NCBI RefSeq assembly: GCF_026343295.1
Contig: NZ_JAPELY010000001.1
Coordinates: 2,170,001 to 2,234,000 of the forward strand
Source of the DNA: Streptomyces sp. NBC_00083
Lineage (GTDB): Bacteria; Actinomycetota; Actinomycetes; Streptomycetales; Streptomycetaceae
Length of the DNA stretch: 64,000 bases
Direction: 5' to 3'
Shown here: positions 6,765-12,443 of the stretch, one piece after another
How positions within the stretch are numbered: the stretch's first letter is position 1
Layout: each line of letters starts with the position of its first letter
The notes under the pieces: model-generated
Seen by the model: the letters and a program-made list of their open reading frames with translations, nothing else
Told to the model about the DNA's origin: nothing
Databases searched by the model: none
Position numbers and translations under genes: made by a program

Positions 6765-6836
6765 GGGCGATTAGCTCAGTGGGAGAGCGCTTCGTTCACA
6801 CCGAAGAGGTCACTGGTTCGAACCCAGTATCGCCCA
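6765..6836 (+). tRNA. tRNA-Val(CAC), copy 1
   Basis: The 72-nt cloverleaf has acceptor GGGCGAT/ATCGCCC, anticodon stem CTTCG/CGAAG and loop TTCACAC with anticodon CAC. The discriminator is A and CCA is not encoded. It is identical to the gene at 7535-7606. A TAATGT hexamer at 6746-6751 may be its -10 box. Confidence 0.95.
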
Positions 6837-6843
6837 CCCGGAC

Positions 6844-6882
6844 CGAAGGCCCCGAAGATCATCTCGATCTCCGGGGCCTTCG
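6844..6882 (+). terminator. Hairpin terminator after tRNA-Val(CAC)
   Basis: CGAAGGCCCCG (6844-6854) pairs with CGGGGCCTTCG (6872-6882) eight bases after the tRNA. The right arm runs directly into the 14-bp repeat array, whose unit begins inside the arm. Confidence 0.75.
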
Positions 6883-6974
6883 TCGTACCGCCTTCGTCGT
6901 ACCGCCTTCGTCGTACCGCCTTCGTCGTACCGCCTTCGTCGTACCGCCTTCGTCGTACCGCCTTCGTCGTACCG
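6877..6974 (+). repeat. 14-bp tandem repeat, seven units
   Basis: The 14-base unit CCTTCGTCGTACCG occurs seven times head to tail without change, then decays at 6975. The first copy starts within the terminator arm of tRNA-Val(CAC). There are no spacers between units, so it is a minisatellite and not CRISPR. Confidence 0.95.
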
Positions 6975-7048
6975 CCTCCGGCGCCCCGCGCACACCCCGG
7001 GCGCAAGGCCCCTGCACGCCGCTCTGCGGCCCCGCGCAGACTGGGGGC

Positions 7049-7534: not shown

Positions 7535-7606
7535 GGGCGATTAGCTCAGTGGGAGAGCGCTTCGTTCACACCGAAGAGGTCACTGGTTCGAACCCAGTAT
7601 CGCCCA
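7535..7606 (+). tRNA. tRNA-Val(CAC), copy 2
   Basis: It is identical over 72 nt to the gene at 6765-6836, with anticodon CAC in loop TTCACAC and no encoded CCA. It has its own promoter-like hexamers and its own terminator, so it is a separate transcription unit. Confidence 0.95.
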
Positions 7607-7612
7607 CCGGGA

Positions 7613-7679: not shown

Positions 7680-8405
7680 TCAAGCCGCCGCCGGGAGTTC
7701 GGGCCGCAACGGCCACGCCGTGTCCACCAGCTCCGGAGTGCCCTGCTTGCTGAACCACGCCTGCAGACCCCGCGCCTGCGCCGCGTGCCACGTCGTCTGC
7801 AACGCGTGCAACTCCGTCGGCGTCAGCCGCTCCAGACGTCCCGCGAACCTGCGCCCCACCGCCCGCACCACCTCCAGGGCCGCCAGCGCGTCGGCCGCCG
7901 CGTCATGCGCGCCCTCCAGCGTCACGCCGTAGTGCTCACACAGATCGGTCAGCGTGCGGCGCCCCTTGCGATAGCGGTCCAGATGCTTGTCCAGGACCCG
8001 GGGATCGAGCACCCGCAACGGATTGCGGCCCAGATAGTGACCGAGGGAGGCCGCCCGATGGCGCCTCAACTCCCGGTCCAGCATGGTCAGATCGAACGGC
8101 GCGTTCATGATGACCAGCGGCCGCCCCGCCGAACACTGCTCGGCGAGCGCCTTCGCGACCTCCTCCATCACCGGAGCCGGCCAACGCCCGTGCAGCTGAA
8201 GGTGCTCGTCCGTCAGGCCGTGCACCTCCGTCGCACCCGCCGGGACGGGTATCCCCGGGTTGATCAGCCAGCGCGTCACCCGCGGCCGCGCCCCCGGCCC
8301 GTCCTGCACCACCAGGGCCGCCGAAACTATCCGGTCCCCTTCGACGTCCACCCCGGTCGTCTCCGTGTCGAACGCCGCCAGGGGACCCTCGAACCAGCAC
8401 GTCAT
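7680..8405 (-). CDS. DnaQ-like DEDDh 3'-5' exonuclease
   Basis: The product (241 aa) has the exonuclease motifs in order: Exo I FDTETTG (residues 12-18), HGLTDE near 64, NAPFD (Exo II, near 100) and HDAAADA (Exo IIIe, near 167). These give the four acidic metal ligands and the general-base His. It resembles DNA polymerase III epsilon, but the about 65-residue C-terminal extension is not the polymerase-binding tail I know. It may act in repair or RNA/DNA trimming. It is divergent from the DUF4365 pair, with 190 bases between. Confidence 0.88.
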   Translation of the reverse strand: MTCWFEGPLAAFDTETTGVDVEGDRIVSAALVVQDGPGARPRVTRWLINPGIPVPAGATEVHGLTDEHLQLHGRWPAPVMEEVAKALAEQCSAGRPLVIMNAPFDLTMLDRELRRHRAASLGHYLGRNPLRVLDPRVLDKHLDRYRKGRRTLTDLCEHYGVTLEGAHDAAADALAALEVVRAVGRRFAGRLERLTPTELHALQTTWHAAQARGLQAWFSKQGTPELVDTAWPLRPELPAAA

Positions 8406-8595: not shown

Positions 8596-9174
8596 ATGGC
8601 GCTCGCGCAGCCCGATCCGGCCGCGCCCGGGTACGGTCTGCTGCCCGAGGGGATCGCACCGCTGCGCGGCTCGCTCGCCACCACCGCCTGCATGGAGACC
8701 CTCCAGGTGGGCTACCTGCACGCGGTGGCCGCCGCCGCGGGGTGCTCGCTGTCGCAGCCCTTCCCGGACAACGGAATCGACTGGCACCTCAGCCACAGCG
8801 CCGCCGGCCACACCGTCGACGACGAAGTGACCATCAAGGTGCAGCTCAAGTGCACGTACCAGATACCGCCGCACCCGCCGGGCGGGGCCTTCTCCTTCAC
8901 GCTCGACAACGACCACCTGGTGAAGCTGGCCCGCACACCCGTCTCGGTGCACAAGATCCTGGTGGTCATGGTGGCGCCGAGGAACCGGGAGGAATGGCTT
9001 CAGGCGGGCCACGACCGGCTCGCGCTGCGGCACTGCTGCTACTGGACCAACCTGGCCGGACACCCGGTGACCGGCCGGCGCAGAACCACGGTGCGAATAC
9101 CGACCTCGCGGATCTTCGACGACCGCGCGCTCTGCGAGATCATGACGCGGGTCGGGGTGGGAGGGAGGCCCTGA
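8596..9174 (+). CDS. DUF4365 protein, PD-(D/E)XK nuclease-like
   Basis: The product (192 aa) matches the DUF4365 pattern. It has an N-terminal helix with E34, then NGIDWHLS with D62 and VQLKCTY with Q83 and K85. D-x(n)-QxK is the core of the PD-(D/E)XK nuclease fold, so metal-dependent nucleic-acid cleavage is a fair inference. A central beta-strand block ILVVMVAP and a Cys pair HCCYW follow. The ATG is preferred over an in-frame TTG at 8542 because GGAAGG precedes it. Its stop overlaps the next start (TGATG), which implies coupled translation. Confidence 0.75.
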   Translation: MALAQPDPAAPGYGLLPEGIAPLRGSLATTACMETLQVGYLHAVAAAAGCSLSQPFPDNGIDWHLSHSAAGHTVDDEVTIKVQLKCTYQIPPHPPGGAFSFTLDNDHLVKLARTPVSVHKILVVMVAPRNREEWLQAGHDRLALRHCCYWTNLAGHPVTGRRRTTVRIPTSRIFDDRALCEIMTRVGVGGRP

Positions 9175-10367
9175 TGCGCTGGTTGGACGAAGAGCCCGGC
9201 GGAACGCCACCGGTTCCCGGCCAGGTCGACCCCGCGGTGCTCGGGGCGCTGCTCAGCCGGCACGGCTGGCGCAGGCGCGGCGGAGCGGCCGGGCACTACA
9301 CCCGCTGGACACCCCCCGGAGCCACCGGCTCCGGCACCAGCCTGCTCGTCCCCGAAAGCAGGGCCTACCCCGACAGCGACGACCTCCTGGGCGAGGCGCT
9401 CACCGCCCTCGCCCGCAGCGCCGCGCCCTCCGCCCGCGAGGTCCTCGTCTCGCTCGCCGTACCCAGCGACGAGGTCCGCTGGTGGCGCGAGGTGCCCGAA
9501 GGCCCCGCAGGCACCGCCTCCTGGAACGAACAGGAACACCTGCGCCGCGCCGCCCACCGCATGCTGCTCGCCGGCGCCCTCGCCGTACGCGGCTCCGCCG
9601 GCCACCACGGCGCGCGCCACCGCAGTCAGGCCCTCGCCTCCCTCGAAGGCGTCCTGGTCGAACCCGCGACCGGCGCGGGCCTCACCGCCTTCGTGCCCGC
9701 GGCCTCCGCCCGGCCCGCCGTCGTCCGCCTGTACGCCGCGCTCAACGCCGTACGCGACGCCGTCGACTACCAGCGCACCACCGGCGGCATGGAGGCCTTC
9801 GACGCCGCCGTACGCGCGGGCGTCAGCCGAGAACTCACCGAGTCCCTCGTCGCGCTGGTGCGAGGCAGCGAGGGCGTGCGGGTCGCCCTCGCCTGGGCAC
9901 CCGCCGCCGGGGTCCCCGAAGGCTGCGCGGCCCGCCCCGAACCCGTCGACTTCTCACCCGGCGACCTGCCCGCCCTGCGTGCCGCCGGCGCCCGCTACCT
10001 CGGCGGCGAACCGTCCGTACCGGTGCGGATCACCGGCGCCGTGGTGCGCCTTCGCCGCCCCGCCCCCCGCGGACCCGGCGTCGTACGGCTCCGCGTGCTG
10101 GCCGGGGCGGAGGTCGACCACGTGCGCATGGAGCTGGACGAGGAGGCGTACCGCATCGCGGGCCACGCGCACCTGGTCGGGCTGCCGATCCGCGTCGTGG
10201 GGCGCCTGGAGAGCCGTGGCGGGTTCCGCCGGCTCTTCGACGCACGCGAGGTGACCCCCGTCCAGGTCGACGACGCCGAACGGGACCGGCTCATGAAGTC
10301 GCTCCAGGAGAACCTCGACTTCTTCGAGGAGGCCTGCGGCGCGGAACCCGGTCCCGCCGACGCGTGA
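9174..10367 (+). CDS. Unknown protein coupled to DUF4365
   Basis: The product (397 aa) is not recognised. Residues 1-60 contain a short GWRRRGGAAGHYTRW segment and the middle (about 95-240) is predicted helical. Residues about 285-370 are rich in alternating strands (VPVRITGAVVRLRR, VRLRVLAG, LPIRVVGRLESR), which suggests an OB-like or small beta-barrel domain. The tail NLDFFEEACG is acidic. The start codon overlaps the stop of the DUF4365 gene by one base, so the two proteins are likely made together and may form a complex. No transmembrane segment or ATP-binding loop is visible. Confidence 0.7.
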   Translation: MRWLDEEPGGTPPVPGQVDPAVLGALLSRHGWRRRGGAAGHYTRWTPPGATGSGTSLLVPESRAYPDSDDLLGEALTALARSAAPSAREVLVSLAVPSDEVRWWREVPEGPAGTASWNEQEHLRRAAHRMLLAGALAVRGSAGHHGARHRSQALASLEGVLVEPATGAGLTAFVPAASARPAVVRLYAALNAVRDAVDYQRTTGGMEAFDAAVRAGVSRELTESLVALVRGSEGVRVALAWAPAAGVPEGCAARPEPVDFSPGDLPALRAAGARYLGGEPSVPVRITGAVVRLRRPAPRGPGVVRLRVLAGAEVDHVRMELDEEAYRIAGHAHLVGLPIRVVGRLESRGGFRRLFDAREVTPVQVDDAERDRLMKSLQENLDFFEEACGAEPGPADA

Positions 10368-10466: not shown

Positions 10467-12443
10467 GTGTCAGACGTCCGTGTGATCATCCAACGCGATT
10501 CCGAGCGGGAAGAGCGCGTGGTGACGACGGGCACTACGGCGGCCGAGCTCTTCGCCGGTGAGCGCACCATCGTCGCGGCCCGCGTCGCCGGCGACCTCAA
10601 GGACCTGGCGTACGAGGTGAAGGACGGCGAGGAGGTCGAGCCCGTCGAGATCTCCTCCGAGGACGGCCTCAACATCCTGCGCCACTCCACCGCGCACGTC
10701 ATGGCCCAGGCGGTGCAGGAGCTGTTCCCCGACGCGAAGCTCGGCATCGGCCCGCCGGTCCGGGACGGTTTCTACTACGACTTCGACGTCGAGAAGCCGT
10801 TCACGCCCGAGGACCTCAAGGCCATCGAGAAGAAGATGCAGGAGATCCAGAAGCGCGGCCAGCGCTTCTCGCGCCGCGTCGTCACCGATGAGGCCGCGCG
10901 CGAGGAGCTCGCGGACGAGCCGTACAAGCTGGAGCTCATCGGCATCAAGGGCTCGGCGTCCACCGACGACGGCGCGAACGTGGAGGTGGGCGGCGGCGAG
11001 CTGACCATCTACGACAACCTCGACGCCAAGACCGGCGACCTGTGCTGGAAGGACCTCTGCCGCGGTCCCCACCTGCCGACCACCCGCAACATCCCCGCGT
11101 TCAAGCTGATGCGCAACGCCGCCGCCTACTGGCGCGGCAGCGAGAAGAACCCGATGCTCCAGCGCATCTACGGCACCGCCTGGCCCTCCAAGGACGAGCT
11201 GAAGGCGCACCTGGAGTTCCTCGCCGAGGCCGAGAAGCGCGACCACCGCAAGCTCGGCAACGAGCTCGACCTGTTCTCCATCCCGGAGCAGATCGGCTCC
11301 GGCCTCGCCGTCTTCCACCCCAAGGGCGGCATCATCCGCCGGGTCATGGAGGACTACTCGCGCCGCCGGCACGAGGAGGAGGGGTACGAGTTCGTCTACA
11401 CCCCGCACGCCACCAAGGGGAAGCTCTTCGAGACCTCGGGCCACCTGGACTGGTACGCCGACGGCATGTACCCGCCCATGCAGCTCGACGAGGGCGTGGA
11501 CTACTACCTCAAGCCCATGAACTGCCCGATGCACAACCTGATCTTCGACGCGCGCGGGCGCTCCTACCGTGAACTCCCGCTGCGGCTCTTCGAGTTCGGC
11601 ACGGTGTACCGGTACGAGAAGTCGGGCGTGGTGCACGGTCTGACCCGCGCGCGGGGCTTCACCCAGGACGACGCGCACATCTACTGCACCAAGGAGCAGA
11701 TGGCCGACGAGCTCGACCGGACGCTCACCTTCGTCCTGAACCTGCTCCGCGACTACGGTCTGAACGACTTCTACCTGGAGCTGTCGACCAAGGACCCGGA
11801 GAAGTTCGTCGGCTCGGACGAGATCTGGGAAGAGGCCACCGACACCCTGCGCAAGGTCGCCGAGAAGCAGGGCCTCGACCTGGTCGCCGACCCGGGCGGC
11901 GCGGCGTTCTACGGCCCGAAGATCTCGGTGCAGGCGCGCGACGCGATCGGCCGCACCTGGCAGATGTCGACCGTGCAGCTCGACTTCAACCTGCCGGAGC
12001 GGTTCGACCTGGAGTACACCGGCCCCGACGGCACCAAGCAGCGTCCGGTGATGATCCACCGCGCGCTGTTCGGCTCCATCGAGCGCTTCTTCGCGGTGCT
12101 CCTGGAGCACTACGCGGGCGCCTTCCCGGCGTGGCTGGCCCCCGTCCAGGCGGTCGGCATCCCGATCGGGGACGCGCACGTGGAGTACCTCCAGGACTTC
12201 GCCCGCCAGGCCAAGGCCAAGGGGCTGCGCGTCGACGTGGACGCGTCCTCGGACCGGATGCAGAAGAAGATCCGCAACCAGCAGAAGCAGAAGGTCCCGT
12301 TCATGATCATCGCGGGTGACGAGGACATGGCCGCGGGCGCCGTCTCCTTCCGCTACCGCGACGGTTCCCAGGAGAACGGTGTTCCGGTGGCCGAGGCCAT
12401 CGCGAAGATCGAGAAGGTCGTGGCGGAGCGGACCCAGGTCTGA
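10467..12443 (+). CDS. thrS: Threonyl-tRNA synthetase
   Basis: The product (658 aa) charges tRNA-Thr. Domain order is: N-terminal TGS domain (about 1-65), editing domain with the [11 protein letters not shown] zinc/His motif (about 70-225), class II catalytic core with MNCPMHN (zinc-binding Cys) and [18 protein letters not shown] (motif 2), and a C-terminal anticodon-binding domain from about 550. Length matches the family. The start is GTG with GGCAGGAGA upstream. The 99-base upstream gap shows no T-box specifier or antiterminator core. Confidence 0.98.

What the first reader, a model, noticed from the sequence alone, without database searches (positions are those of the whole stretch)
8596..10367. 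Two-gene nuclease-like unit: DUF4365 protein plus an unrecognised 397-aa partner
Seen: a 192-aa protein with D62 and Q83-x-K85, the PD-(D/E)XK core arrangement, is followed by a 397-aa protein of no known family whose start overlaps its stop by one base. The partner's C-terminal part alternates strands like an OB/small beta-barrel. Divergent from the pair is a DEDDh exonuclease. Inference: the two proteins form a complex acting on nucleic acid, possibly with the exonuclease. Because it sits in core chromosome it may be a housekeeping repair device rather than phage defence. This is the best candidate for an undescribed system.
Basis: partly seen in the sequence, partly recalled or inferred. 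Interest (0 to 1): 0.72.

Follow-up and report, generated by a model that had tools for sequence, protein, structure and literature searches.

The report
Nuclease–OB protein pair fixed in Streptomyces
A predicted DNA-cutting enzyme and its predicted nucleic-acid-binding partner, a pair whose relatives sit on phages and plasmids and beside anti-phage genes, has settled at one fixed chromosomal spot in Streptomyces and close relatives, and the partner is sometimes kept under selection after the cutting enzyme is lost.

Summary
A (8596-9174, 192 aa) carries the DUF4365 motif DxGxD…QxK (D58, D62, Q83, K85). B (9174-10367, 397 aa) overlaps A's stop by one base and ends in an OB fold. "No known family" is wrong: PADLOC-DB v2 lists both as candidate defence pair PDC-M02A/M02B (E 1.7e-90, 1.3e-174); a full-text search found no paper naming it. 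In the phage, plasmid and chromosomal loci that I opened for A, B follows directly. Accessory copies lie beside DISARM and GmrSD-type genes. The window's copy belongs to one clade, fixed between a DEDDh exonuclease and thrS in Streptomyces, Kitasatospora and Actinacidiphila. The exonuclease often stays when the pair is lost, so it is probably not a component. New here: B has a HicA-like N-domain (catalytic His not conserved), a central domain and an OB fold. B is kept under purifying selection in genomes that lost A; a second genus keeps an N-less, A-less B at its own locus. Best reading: a domesticated DREN-nuclease immune module in which B senses nucleic acid and gates A, with a further role of B without A. 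No activity was tested.

The parts
8596..9174 (+). gene A: DUF4365 (DREN-type) PD-(D/E)XK nuclease, 192 aa; PDC-M02A
   Evidence: PF14280 E 4.9e-21; PDLC04276 E 1.7e-90; fold, low-confidence model
8767..8781 (+). codons D58-N59-G60-I61-D62 (first half of the DxGxD...QxK motif)
   Evidence: 122/122 core rows; motif named in PMC11297309 (passages)
8842..8850 (+). codons Q83-L84-K85 (second half of the motif)
   Evidence: Q and K in 160 of 160 rows (122 core, 25 accessory, 13 phage/plasmid)
9174..10367 (+). gene B: 397-aa partner, PDC-M02B; starts on the last base of A's stop
   Evidence: PDLC04317 E 1.3e-174; AlphaFold2 mean pLDDT 87.8
9207..9458 (+). B residues 12-95: N-domain, HicA/dsRBD-like alpha-beta-beta-beta-alpha, catalytic His not conserved
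   Evidence: secondary structure; hhalign prob 66.6; 0 of 200 column shuffles as high
9465..10001 (+). B residues 98-276: central domain, fold not identified, absent from the short B of some plasmids
10008..10271 (+). B residues 279-366: OB fold
7680..8405 (-). neighbour, probably not a component: DEDDh exonuclease (PRK07942 family)
   Evidence: often stays when the pair is lost
10467..12443 (+). neighbour, not a component: thrS (threonyl-tRNA synthetase), right flank of the core locus
   Evidence: the name thrS is recalled from the look of the sequence, no family search was made of it

Best explanation
A and B are a domesticated copy of a mobile anti-phage effector pair (PADLOC candidate PDC-M02). 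A is a DREN-type (DUF4365) PD-(D/E)XK nuclease that is probably silent alone. B is its sensor and scaffold: the OB fold binds single-stranded nucleic acid, and the HicA-like N-domain docks on A. When B meets its trigger (most likely phage-derived or damage-derived ssDNA, possibly RNA), it gathers A subunits into an active assembly that cuts nucleic acid without sequence preference and stops phage spread. The pair entered an ancestor of Streptomycetaceae once and was fixed between an exonuclease gene and thrS. B also has a function without A. Shown here by computation: family, fold, motif, operon coupling, single core clade, defence neighbourhood of accessory copies, selection on B without A. 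Inferred: complex, trigger, activation by assembly, phage defence by the core copy.
For: Both proteins match PDC-M02A/B over nearly their whole length. Motif DxGxD...QxK intact in 122/122 core rows; mutating three of its four residues one by one abolished toxicity of another DUF4365 protein (PMC11297309, passages); a DUF4365-APAZ/Argonaute complex degrades DNA non-specifically when activated (PMC10810196, passages), and the DREN domain alone is monomeric with undetectable activity, tetramers being active (PMC12205087, passages). Model of A matches SPARDA chains (Foldseek E 2.2e-4; Z 9.2) and Hjc resolvases (Z 9.5). B: OB fold, N-domain HicA-like. B-selected, best-scoring loci: A directly upstream in 58 of 58 non-window loci; A-selected: B next in 77 of 77 core loci with right flank (one of them, L097, interrupted) and in 15 of 15 phage/plasmid loci opened (14 by profile, L173 by eye). 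Accessory copies beside DrmA, DrmD, GmrSD-like genes, a type IIG enzyme in phage LE1, and at the end of a prophage record. Core copies form one clade, 28 of 28 rows.
Against: I found no phage, toxicity or binding experiment for any A-B pair (listings). The core copy lies among housekeeping genes, not in a defence island. A's model is weak (pLDDT 58.8). No A-B complex could be modelled. B's survival without A means defence by nuclease cannot be the whole story. 14 label changes for pair loss on the thrS tree show that the pair is dispensable. tblastn with B found nothing in the phage and plasmid collections and two viral-contig scans gave nothing; the phage and plasmid members were reached through A. 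The top VIA match of B's OB part is the metal-binding protein SilF (Z 9.9), so ssDNA binding does not follow from the fold. Control windows hold some PADLOC matches too, for instance a type I restriction enzyme.
Confidence: 0.5

Rival explanations
1. Toxin-antitoxin-like pair: A is a constitutively harmful nuclease, B its antitoxin and repressor; fixation came by addiction and defence is secondary.
For: Overlapping genes; seven genomes keep an open B at the core locus with no A or only an A remnant, needing 4 label changes on the thrS tree. Three cyanobacterial plasmids carry the pair near an integrase, two of them also near a ParA gene. B's N-domain is HicA-like.
Against: The reverse, A intact with B broken, also occurs: L154 (frameshift), L097 (B in three pieces with a change of frame) and, in a poor assembly, L155; so 3-4 events stand against 2-3 and show no clear order of loss. 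B stays under selection after A is gone (pN/pS 0.156 and 0.316), which an antitoxin would not need. A studied DREN domain is silent alone (PMC12205087, passages).
Confidence: 0.17
2. Housekeeping DNA-repair device of Streptomycetaceae: B loads on ssDNA at forks or breaks and A trims structures, as a resolvase would.
For: Fixed core position; A's structural neighbours include Holliday-junction resolvases (Z 9.5); B's OB part resembles SSB, RPA, PriB and RecO among others.
Against: Lost many times; the same pair on phages and plasmids and beside DISARM genes; DEDDh neighbour independent.
Confidence: 0.2
3. The core copy no longer defends: B was exapted as a stand-alone nucleic-acid-binding regulator, with A tolerated or used only as its accessory.
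For: B under purifying selection in A-less Streptomyces and an N-less, A-less B' in genus g64.
Against: A is more conserved than B in the core clade (A 72-89%, B 45-77% identity to the window protein, leaving out the non-core row L063) and its catalytic motif never varies (122/122).
Confidence: 0.1

Closest known systems
PDC-M02 (phage defence candidate, PADLOC-DB 2.0.0)
   Same: Both proteins match its HMMs over nearly their length, same order, adjacent.
   Different: A database candidate; a full-text search for its name found 0 papers. The window's copy is core-fixed and not in a defence island.
SPARDA (short pAgo with DUF4365-APAZ / DREN)
   Same: Same nuclease family and motif; best Foldseek matches of A.
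   Different: No APAZ domain and no Argonaute; the partner is a HicA-like/OB protein.
DISARM
   Same: Accessory relatives lie beside drmA (L181, L188, divergent from A) or upstream of drmD on the same strand (L182, L184).
   Different: The window's copy is flanked by exo and thrS; that A and B are not among DISARM's named genes is recalled.
DUF6575 protein of a PD system (Vassallo et al. 2022, PMC9519451)
   Same: A DUF6575 protein is B's second-best viral fold match, E 2.1e-5, over 399 columns; DUF6575 occurs in one of the 21 defence systems of that paper (passages).
   Different: No Pfam match of B or five relatives to DUF6575 (that the library holds this model was not checked); TM-score 0.25; which PD system it is could not be read.
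HicA toxins
   Same: B's N-domain aligns with HicA by profile (prob 66.6; 0 of 200 shuffles as high).
   Different: The column of the window's H41 holds H in 4 of 65 rows; the N-domain is part of a larger protein; no HicB was looked for.
SSB / RPA / PriB / RecO OB folds
   Same: B 279-366.
   Different: Fused to two other domains; ssDNA binding untested; SilF, a metal-binding barrel, scores as high (Z 9.9); Z 8-10 is a common-fold level.

Membership tests
PDC-M02 (PADLOC) | A matches PDC-M02A models | tested here: met
   PDLC04276 E 1.7e-90, residues 1-192 on 1-184/184
PDC-M02 (PADLOC) | B matches PDC-M02B models | tested here: met
   PDLC04317 E 1.3e-174, residues 10-389 on 7-394/396
PDC-M02 (PADLOC) | the two genes adjacent | tested here: met
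PDC-M02 (PADLOC) | defends against phage | not testable with these tools
   candidate status only
DUF4365 / DREN nuclease | DUF4365 profile above its gathering score | tested here: met
   75.7 bits against 24.3
DUF4365 / DREN nuclease | motif DxGxD...QxK | tested here: met
   122 of 122 core rows
DUF4365 / DREN nuclease | PD-(D/E)XK fold | tested here: met
   model confidence low (pLDDT 58.8)
DUF4365 / DREN nuclease | nuclease activity | not testable with these tools
   inferred from PMC10810196, PMC11297309 (passages)
SPARDA | APAZ domain fused to the nuclease | tested here: not met
   A is 192 aa with DUF4365 over 38-185 and no other domain over a Pfam cut-off
SPARDA | short Argonaute in the operon | tested here: not met
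   partner B is HicA-like + central + OB; flanks are exo and thrS
DISARM | drm genes beside the pair | tested here: not met
   window-type copies: exo, thrS and HIT flanks in 74 of 80 loci, the other 6 being contig ends or the non-core L063
HicA (HicAB toxin-antitoxin) | catalytic His | tested here: not met
   H in 4 of 65 rows at the window's H41 column
HicA (HicAB toxin-antitoxin) | dsRBD-like fold of the N-domain | tested here: inconclusive
   profile match (HicA side: six sequences) and secondary structure; domain not folded or searched alone
DUF6575 | Pfam DUF6575 profile | tested here: inconclusive
   no match of B or five relatives, but presence of the model in the library was not checked
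DUF6575 | shared fold | tested here: inconclusive
   BFVD match E 2.1e-5, TM 0.25
Toxin-antitoxin pair | A toxic alone, neutralised by B | not testable with these tools
   no clear order of gene loss

The most novel reading that the evidence does not exclude
The partner, not the nuclease, is the lasting part. B's central + OB module is a stand-alone nucleic-acid sensor that actinobacteria have kept by itself on the chromosome in at least two lineages after shedding the nuclease together with the HicA-like domain that docks it. The pair fixed beside thrS in Streptomycetaceae would then be a domesticated immune sensor-effector with a second, cellular duty.
Probability: 0.4. Interest if true: 0.68.

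Novelty: new variant of a known kind. Interest (0 to 1): 0.52.

Why it matters
Anti-phage systems usually come and go on islands (established view, recalled); this pair is vertically fixed at a single locus across a family of antibiotic producers, so its cost, trigger and duty can be studied by plain deletion in laboratory Streptomyces. It would show DREN nucleases working with a non-Argonaute partner, gives that partner a domain map with a testable docking domain, and raises the question why B is kept when the nuclease is gone.

Tried and rejected
Exonuclease as third component: not supported. Phage or plasmid members by sequence search with B: tblastn found nothing, viral-contig scans with A2 and A3 found nothing; A found 25 plasmid and 4 phage records, of which I opened 13 plasmids (one unannotated, L173, read by eye) and 2 phage records, the other 2 phage records being near-copies by length and position. 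PDB sequence search with profiles of A and B gave only weak hits to unrelated proteins. S. coelicolor gene numbers recalled from memory led to 2 papers, seen as a listing only and not on A or B by title.

Withdrawn or dropped rows: one search made A look truncated in L153 and split in L151/L152; L153 has a run of N in the assembly, and in L151/L152 one open alignment spans A with extra codons, so they are not counted as A loss. L144 was dropped (contig ends inside B), L155 dropped (the HIT gene is frameshifted too: poor assembly). L097 was labelled AB in the thrS tree although its B is in three pieces (run after the tree); this weakens an earlier thought that A is regularly lost first, and I lowered the toxin-antitoxin rival from 0.20 to 0.17 for it. 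Weak second A matches without a B match in the 150 genomes (G012, G022, G085, G117, G119, G140, G148) were not opened.

Limits: the gene caller missed A in L182, L188, L191, L193 and B in L195, L197; adjacency there rests, and some called neighbours are spurious (L188:9530-10261 overlaps A on the other strand). For the neighbour scan 116 proteins were picked of 182 and 3 long ones dropped for the residue limit, so 113 went in; the control was 116 of 211 proteins from 20 windows of only 7 genomes. Both PADLOC tallies list only the first 25 families (of 150 and 49). B starts were chosen as the start codon nearest A's end, which favours overlaps. A third structure job (N-domain or central domain alone, or the complex) was not possible: 2 of 2 used. 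VIA-align rows for B cover little but its OB part.

Full report
What is there. A matches Pfam DUF4365 (E 4.9e-21), B matches no Pfam family at E 1 and no NCBIfam family above its cut-off. PADLOC-DB matches both over nearly their length: A to PDC-M02A (E 1.7e-90), B to PDC-M02B (E 1.3e-174). So the pair is a listed phage-defence candidate. A full-text search for PDC-M02 found 0 papers; a search for PDC-M0 or PDC-M1 found 7, seen as a listing only. Ten papers hold DUF4365 (listing; four of them read in passages). That the genome is a Streptomyces is inferred from its place among named Streptomyces loci; the genome itself is unnamed.

A is a DREN-type nuclease. In 122 of 122 core rows D58, G60, D62, Q83, K85 are identical; accessory rows keep Q83 and K85 in 25 of 25 and D62 in 23 of 25, phage/plasmid rows all three in 13 of 13. 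The AlphaFold2 model is weak (mean pLDDT 58.8) but its five Foldseek hits under 0.001 are all SPARDA chains (best E 2.2e-4), followed by more SPARDA chains, DpnI, Hjc and EcoRV; VIA-align gives Hjc Z 9.5 (rmsd 3.1, 121 aligned) and SPARDA Z 9.2 (rmsd 4.4, 144 aligned). Papers, read as passages only: DUF4365 is a RecB-like nuclease found with short Argonautes (PMC6299218); three of the four motif residues DxGxD...QxK, changed one by one, were needed for toxicity of another DUF4365 protein (PMC11297309); a DUF4365-APAZ/Argonaute complex degrades DNA non-specifically once activated (PMC10810196); the DREN domain alone is monomeric with undetectable activity and is activated by tetramerisation (PMC12205087).

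B has three parts. The model is good (mean pLDDT 87.8). Residues 279-366 are an OB fold: Foldseek ranks RPA and SSB chains first (best E 5.2e-4), VIA-align ranks the metal-binding SilF first (Z 9.9), then SSB, PriB, RecO and RPA (Z 8-9). Residues 12-95 align by profile with HicA toxins (hhalign probability 66.6, score 25.6); 0 of 200 column-shuffled alignments scored as high, the best of the decoys from other parts of A and B scored 18.6, and the reversed alignment 5.8. The HicA profile was built from only six sequences. The column of the window's H41 holds H in 4 of 65 rows, while W32 is W in 65 of 65, so a HicA-like but non-catalytic domain is likely. The middle part, 98-276, is unidentified. 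The whole of B also matches a protein of Leptospira phage LE1 (BFVD, E 1.4e-16, TM 0.45) and, weakly, a DUF6575 protein (E 2.1e-5, TM 0.25).

The unit is real and wide. In 58 of 58 B-selected, best-scoring non-window loci A lies directly upstream on the same strand. A genome-contig scan selected on A kept the best 80 of 507 relatives, 79 of them Streptomycetaceae (75 Streptomyces, 2 Kitasatospora, 2 Actinacidiphila by record title) and one MAG; among the 79, B follows in 77 of 77 with right flank (interrupted in L097), the exonuclease precedes in 78 of 78 with left flank, thrS follows in 77 of 77; in 72 of 76 the reading frames overlap by 1 or 4 bases, starts being chosen nearest A's end. Outside: Leptospira phage LE1 (beside a type IIG restriction enzyme), a Mycobacterium abscessus prophage, and plasmids of Alphaproteobacteria, Caballeronia, a clostridial species, Paenarthrobacter, Streptomyces and cyanobacteria: B follows A in 15 of 15 loci opened, 14 by profile and one by eye. 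Five of these have a short B made of the N-domain and, in four of them, a detectable OB part, without the middle.

Defence company. Of 113 neighbours of 20 accessory actinobacterial copies, 6 match each of the GmrSD-like models Orf5, HEC-06 and SspE, 4 match DrmD and 4 DrmA models (for L182 and L184 the same protein matches both), 150 PADLOC families in all at E 1e-10. Of 116 proteins from 20 control windows of 7 of the same genomes no family matched more than 3, 49 families in all, none of those names among the 25 listed, though a type I restriction enzyme and mad genes are. GmrSD-like gene, A, B and a DrmD-type helicase follow each other on one strand in L182 and L184 (named by PADLOC) and in L185 (by Pfam domains); DrmA stands divergent beside A in L181 and L188. 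None of 37 accessory or non-core loci holds exo, thrS or HIT.

The core copy. In 150 genomes of the genus 128 match B and 122 match A; some are accessory or remnants only (B: G044, G145 accessory, G149 remnants, G032 a contig-end piece; A: G032, G044, G145 accessory, G047, G105, G131 remnants). In a class-wide sample 41 of 296 genomes in 12 of 114 genera match one PDC-M02B model. On a B tree of 63 rows the 28 core rows are one side of a branch (support 100), next to three Streptomyces accessory copies and the MAG-type copies. One entry before the split of Kitasatospora and Streptomyces fits.

Loss. Of 20 genomes without a B match that I searched for thrS (two further ones were not listed), 18 have it; the exonuclease remains within 1.5 kb of thrS in 10 of these 18 (one of them, L229, keeps a B remnant; one, L220, an A remnant), so the exonuclease is a bystander. 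On a thrS tree of 112 rows 'none' needs 14 changes and 'B only' 4. B-only genomes: L143, L145-L150. L145-L148 lack A and B's N-domain; L143, L149, L150 keep the N-domain, and L149/L150 keep a stub of A. The B tree puts L145-L147 in one clade, so 3 origins may do instead of 4. None of the seven has a DUF4365 profile match at E 0.1 (the same profile finds A in the window's genome). The reverse state also exists: A intact with B frameshifted in L154, B in three pieces in L097, and L155 in a poor assembly. So there is no clear order of loss.

B is kept without A. In the close A-less pairs pN/pS of B is 0.156 (L146/L148, Fisher p 9e-15) and 0.316 (L149/L150, p 4e-7); the wider pairs L145/L146 and L145/L147 give 0.543 and 0.621. 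Frame control: of the six frames B's own has the lowest value and no stop in both close pairs (0.156 and 0.306; the other frames 0.254 to 2.9 and 0.396 to 3.6). The region of the A stub in L149/L150 is at 85% DNA identity in 12 alignment blocks against 94% for B; its open frame gave pN/pS 1.08, a weak figure because the frames differ. In a second genus (g64) five genomes of the class sample carry a B-like gene, B', without N-domain and without A in the 6-9.5 kb fetched; the same flanking genes (lactate-racemase-like, acyltransferase, short-chain dehydrogenase) recur around it in L242, L244 and L246 and in part in L243 and L245, with B' turned round in L243 and L244 relative to L242 and L246. 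pN/pS is 0.304, 0.545 and 0.491 in three pairs, again lowest in B's frame for the two pairs tested (0.301, 0.543). A long antisense open frame was called over B' in L242; homology to B (E 1e-50) and the frame control speak against it. Three of these genomes also hold a full pair elsewhere.

Mechanism. Among 65 aligned B rows with N-domain, 63 have A; of 12 A-less B genes 9 lack the N-domain. The middle can be missing when A is present. That points to the N-domain as A's dock and to middle + OB as a unit that can work alone. With what is known of DREN domains, B most likely holds A silent and gathers it into an active form on binding its nucleic-acid trigger. This is inference; no binding, cutting or phage result exists here.

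Verdict. It is a core-fixed, domesticated variant of a catalogued defence candidate for which I found no test, with a new and testable twist: selection on B without A.

Noticed in passing
6765-6838 and 7535-7608: Two tRNA-Val (CAC) genes 700 bases apart; the second ends 71 bases from the exonuclease gene next to the pair. tRNA genes are common integration sites, a possible clue to how the pair arrived.
   Followed up: no
6876-6977: A perfect tandem array, 7.3 copies of the 14-mer GCCTTCGTCGTACC, between the two tRNA-Val genes.
   Followed up: no
L242-L246 (genus g64): An N-less, A-less relative of B on the chromosome near acyltransferase and short-chain dehydrogenase genes, under purifying selection and turned round between two pairs of genomes.
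   Followed up: partly
L165, L169, L171, L175, L177: Short B proteins (175-185 aa) on cyanobacterial and Azospirillum plasmids: N-domain plus (in four) an OB part, without the middle domain; an integrase is near in L165, L171, L177, a ParA gene in L165 and L171.
   Followed up: partly
L182, L185 (also L183, L184): Streptomyces accessory pairs stand beside a GmrSD-like gene that also carries an O6-methylguanine-methyltransferase-type DNA-binding domain (seen in L182 and L185).
   Followed up: no
L154 (G101) B near codon 159; L097 B between codons 192 and 209: B is broken while A is intact; real or a sequencing error unknown.
   Followed up: partly
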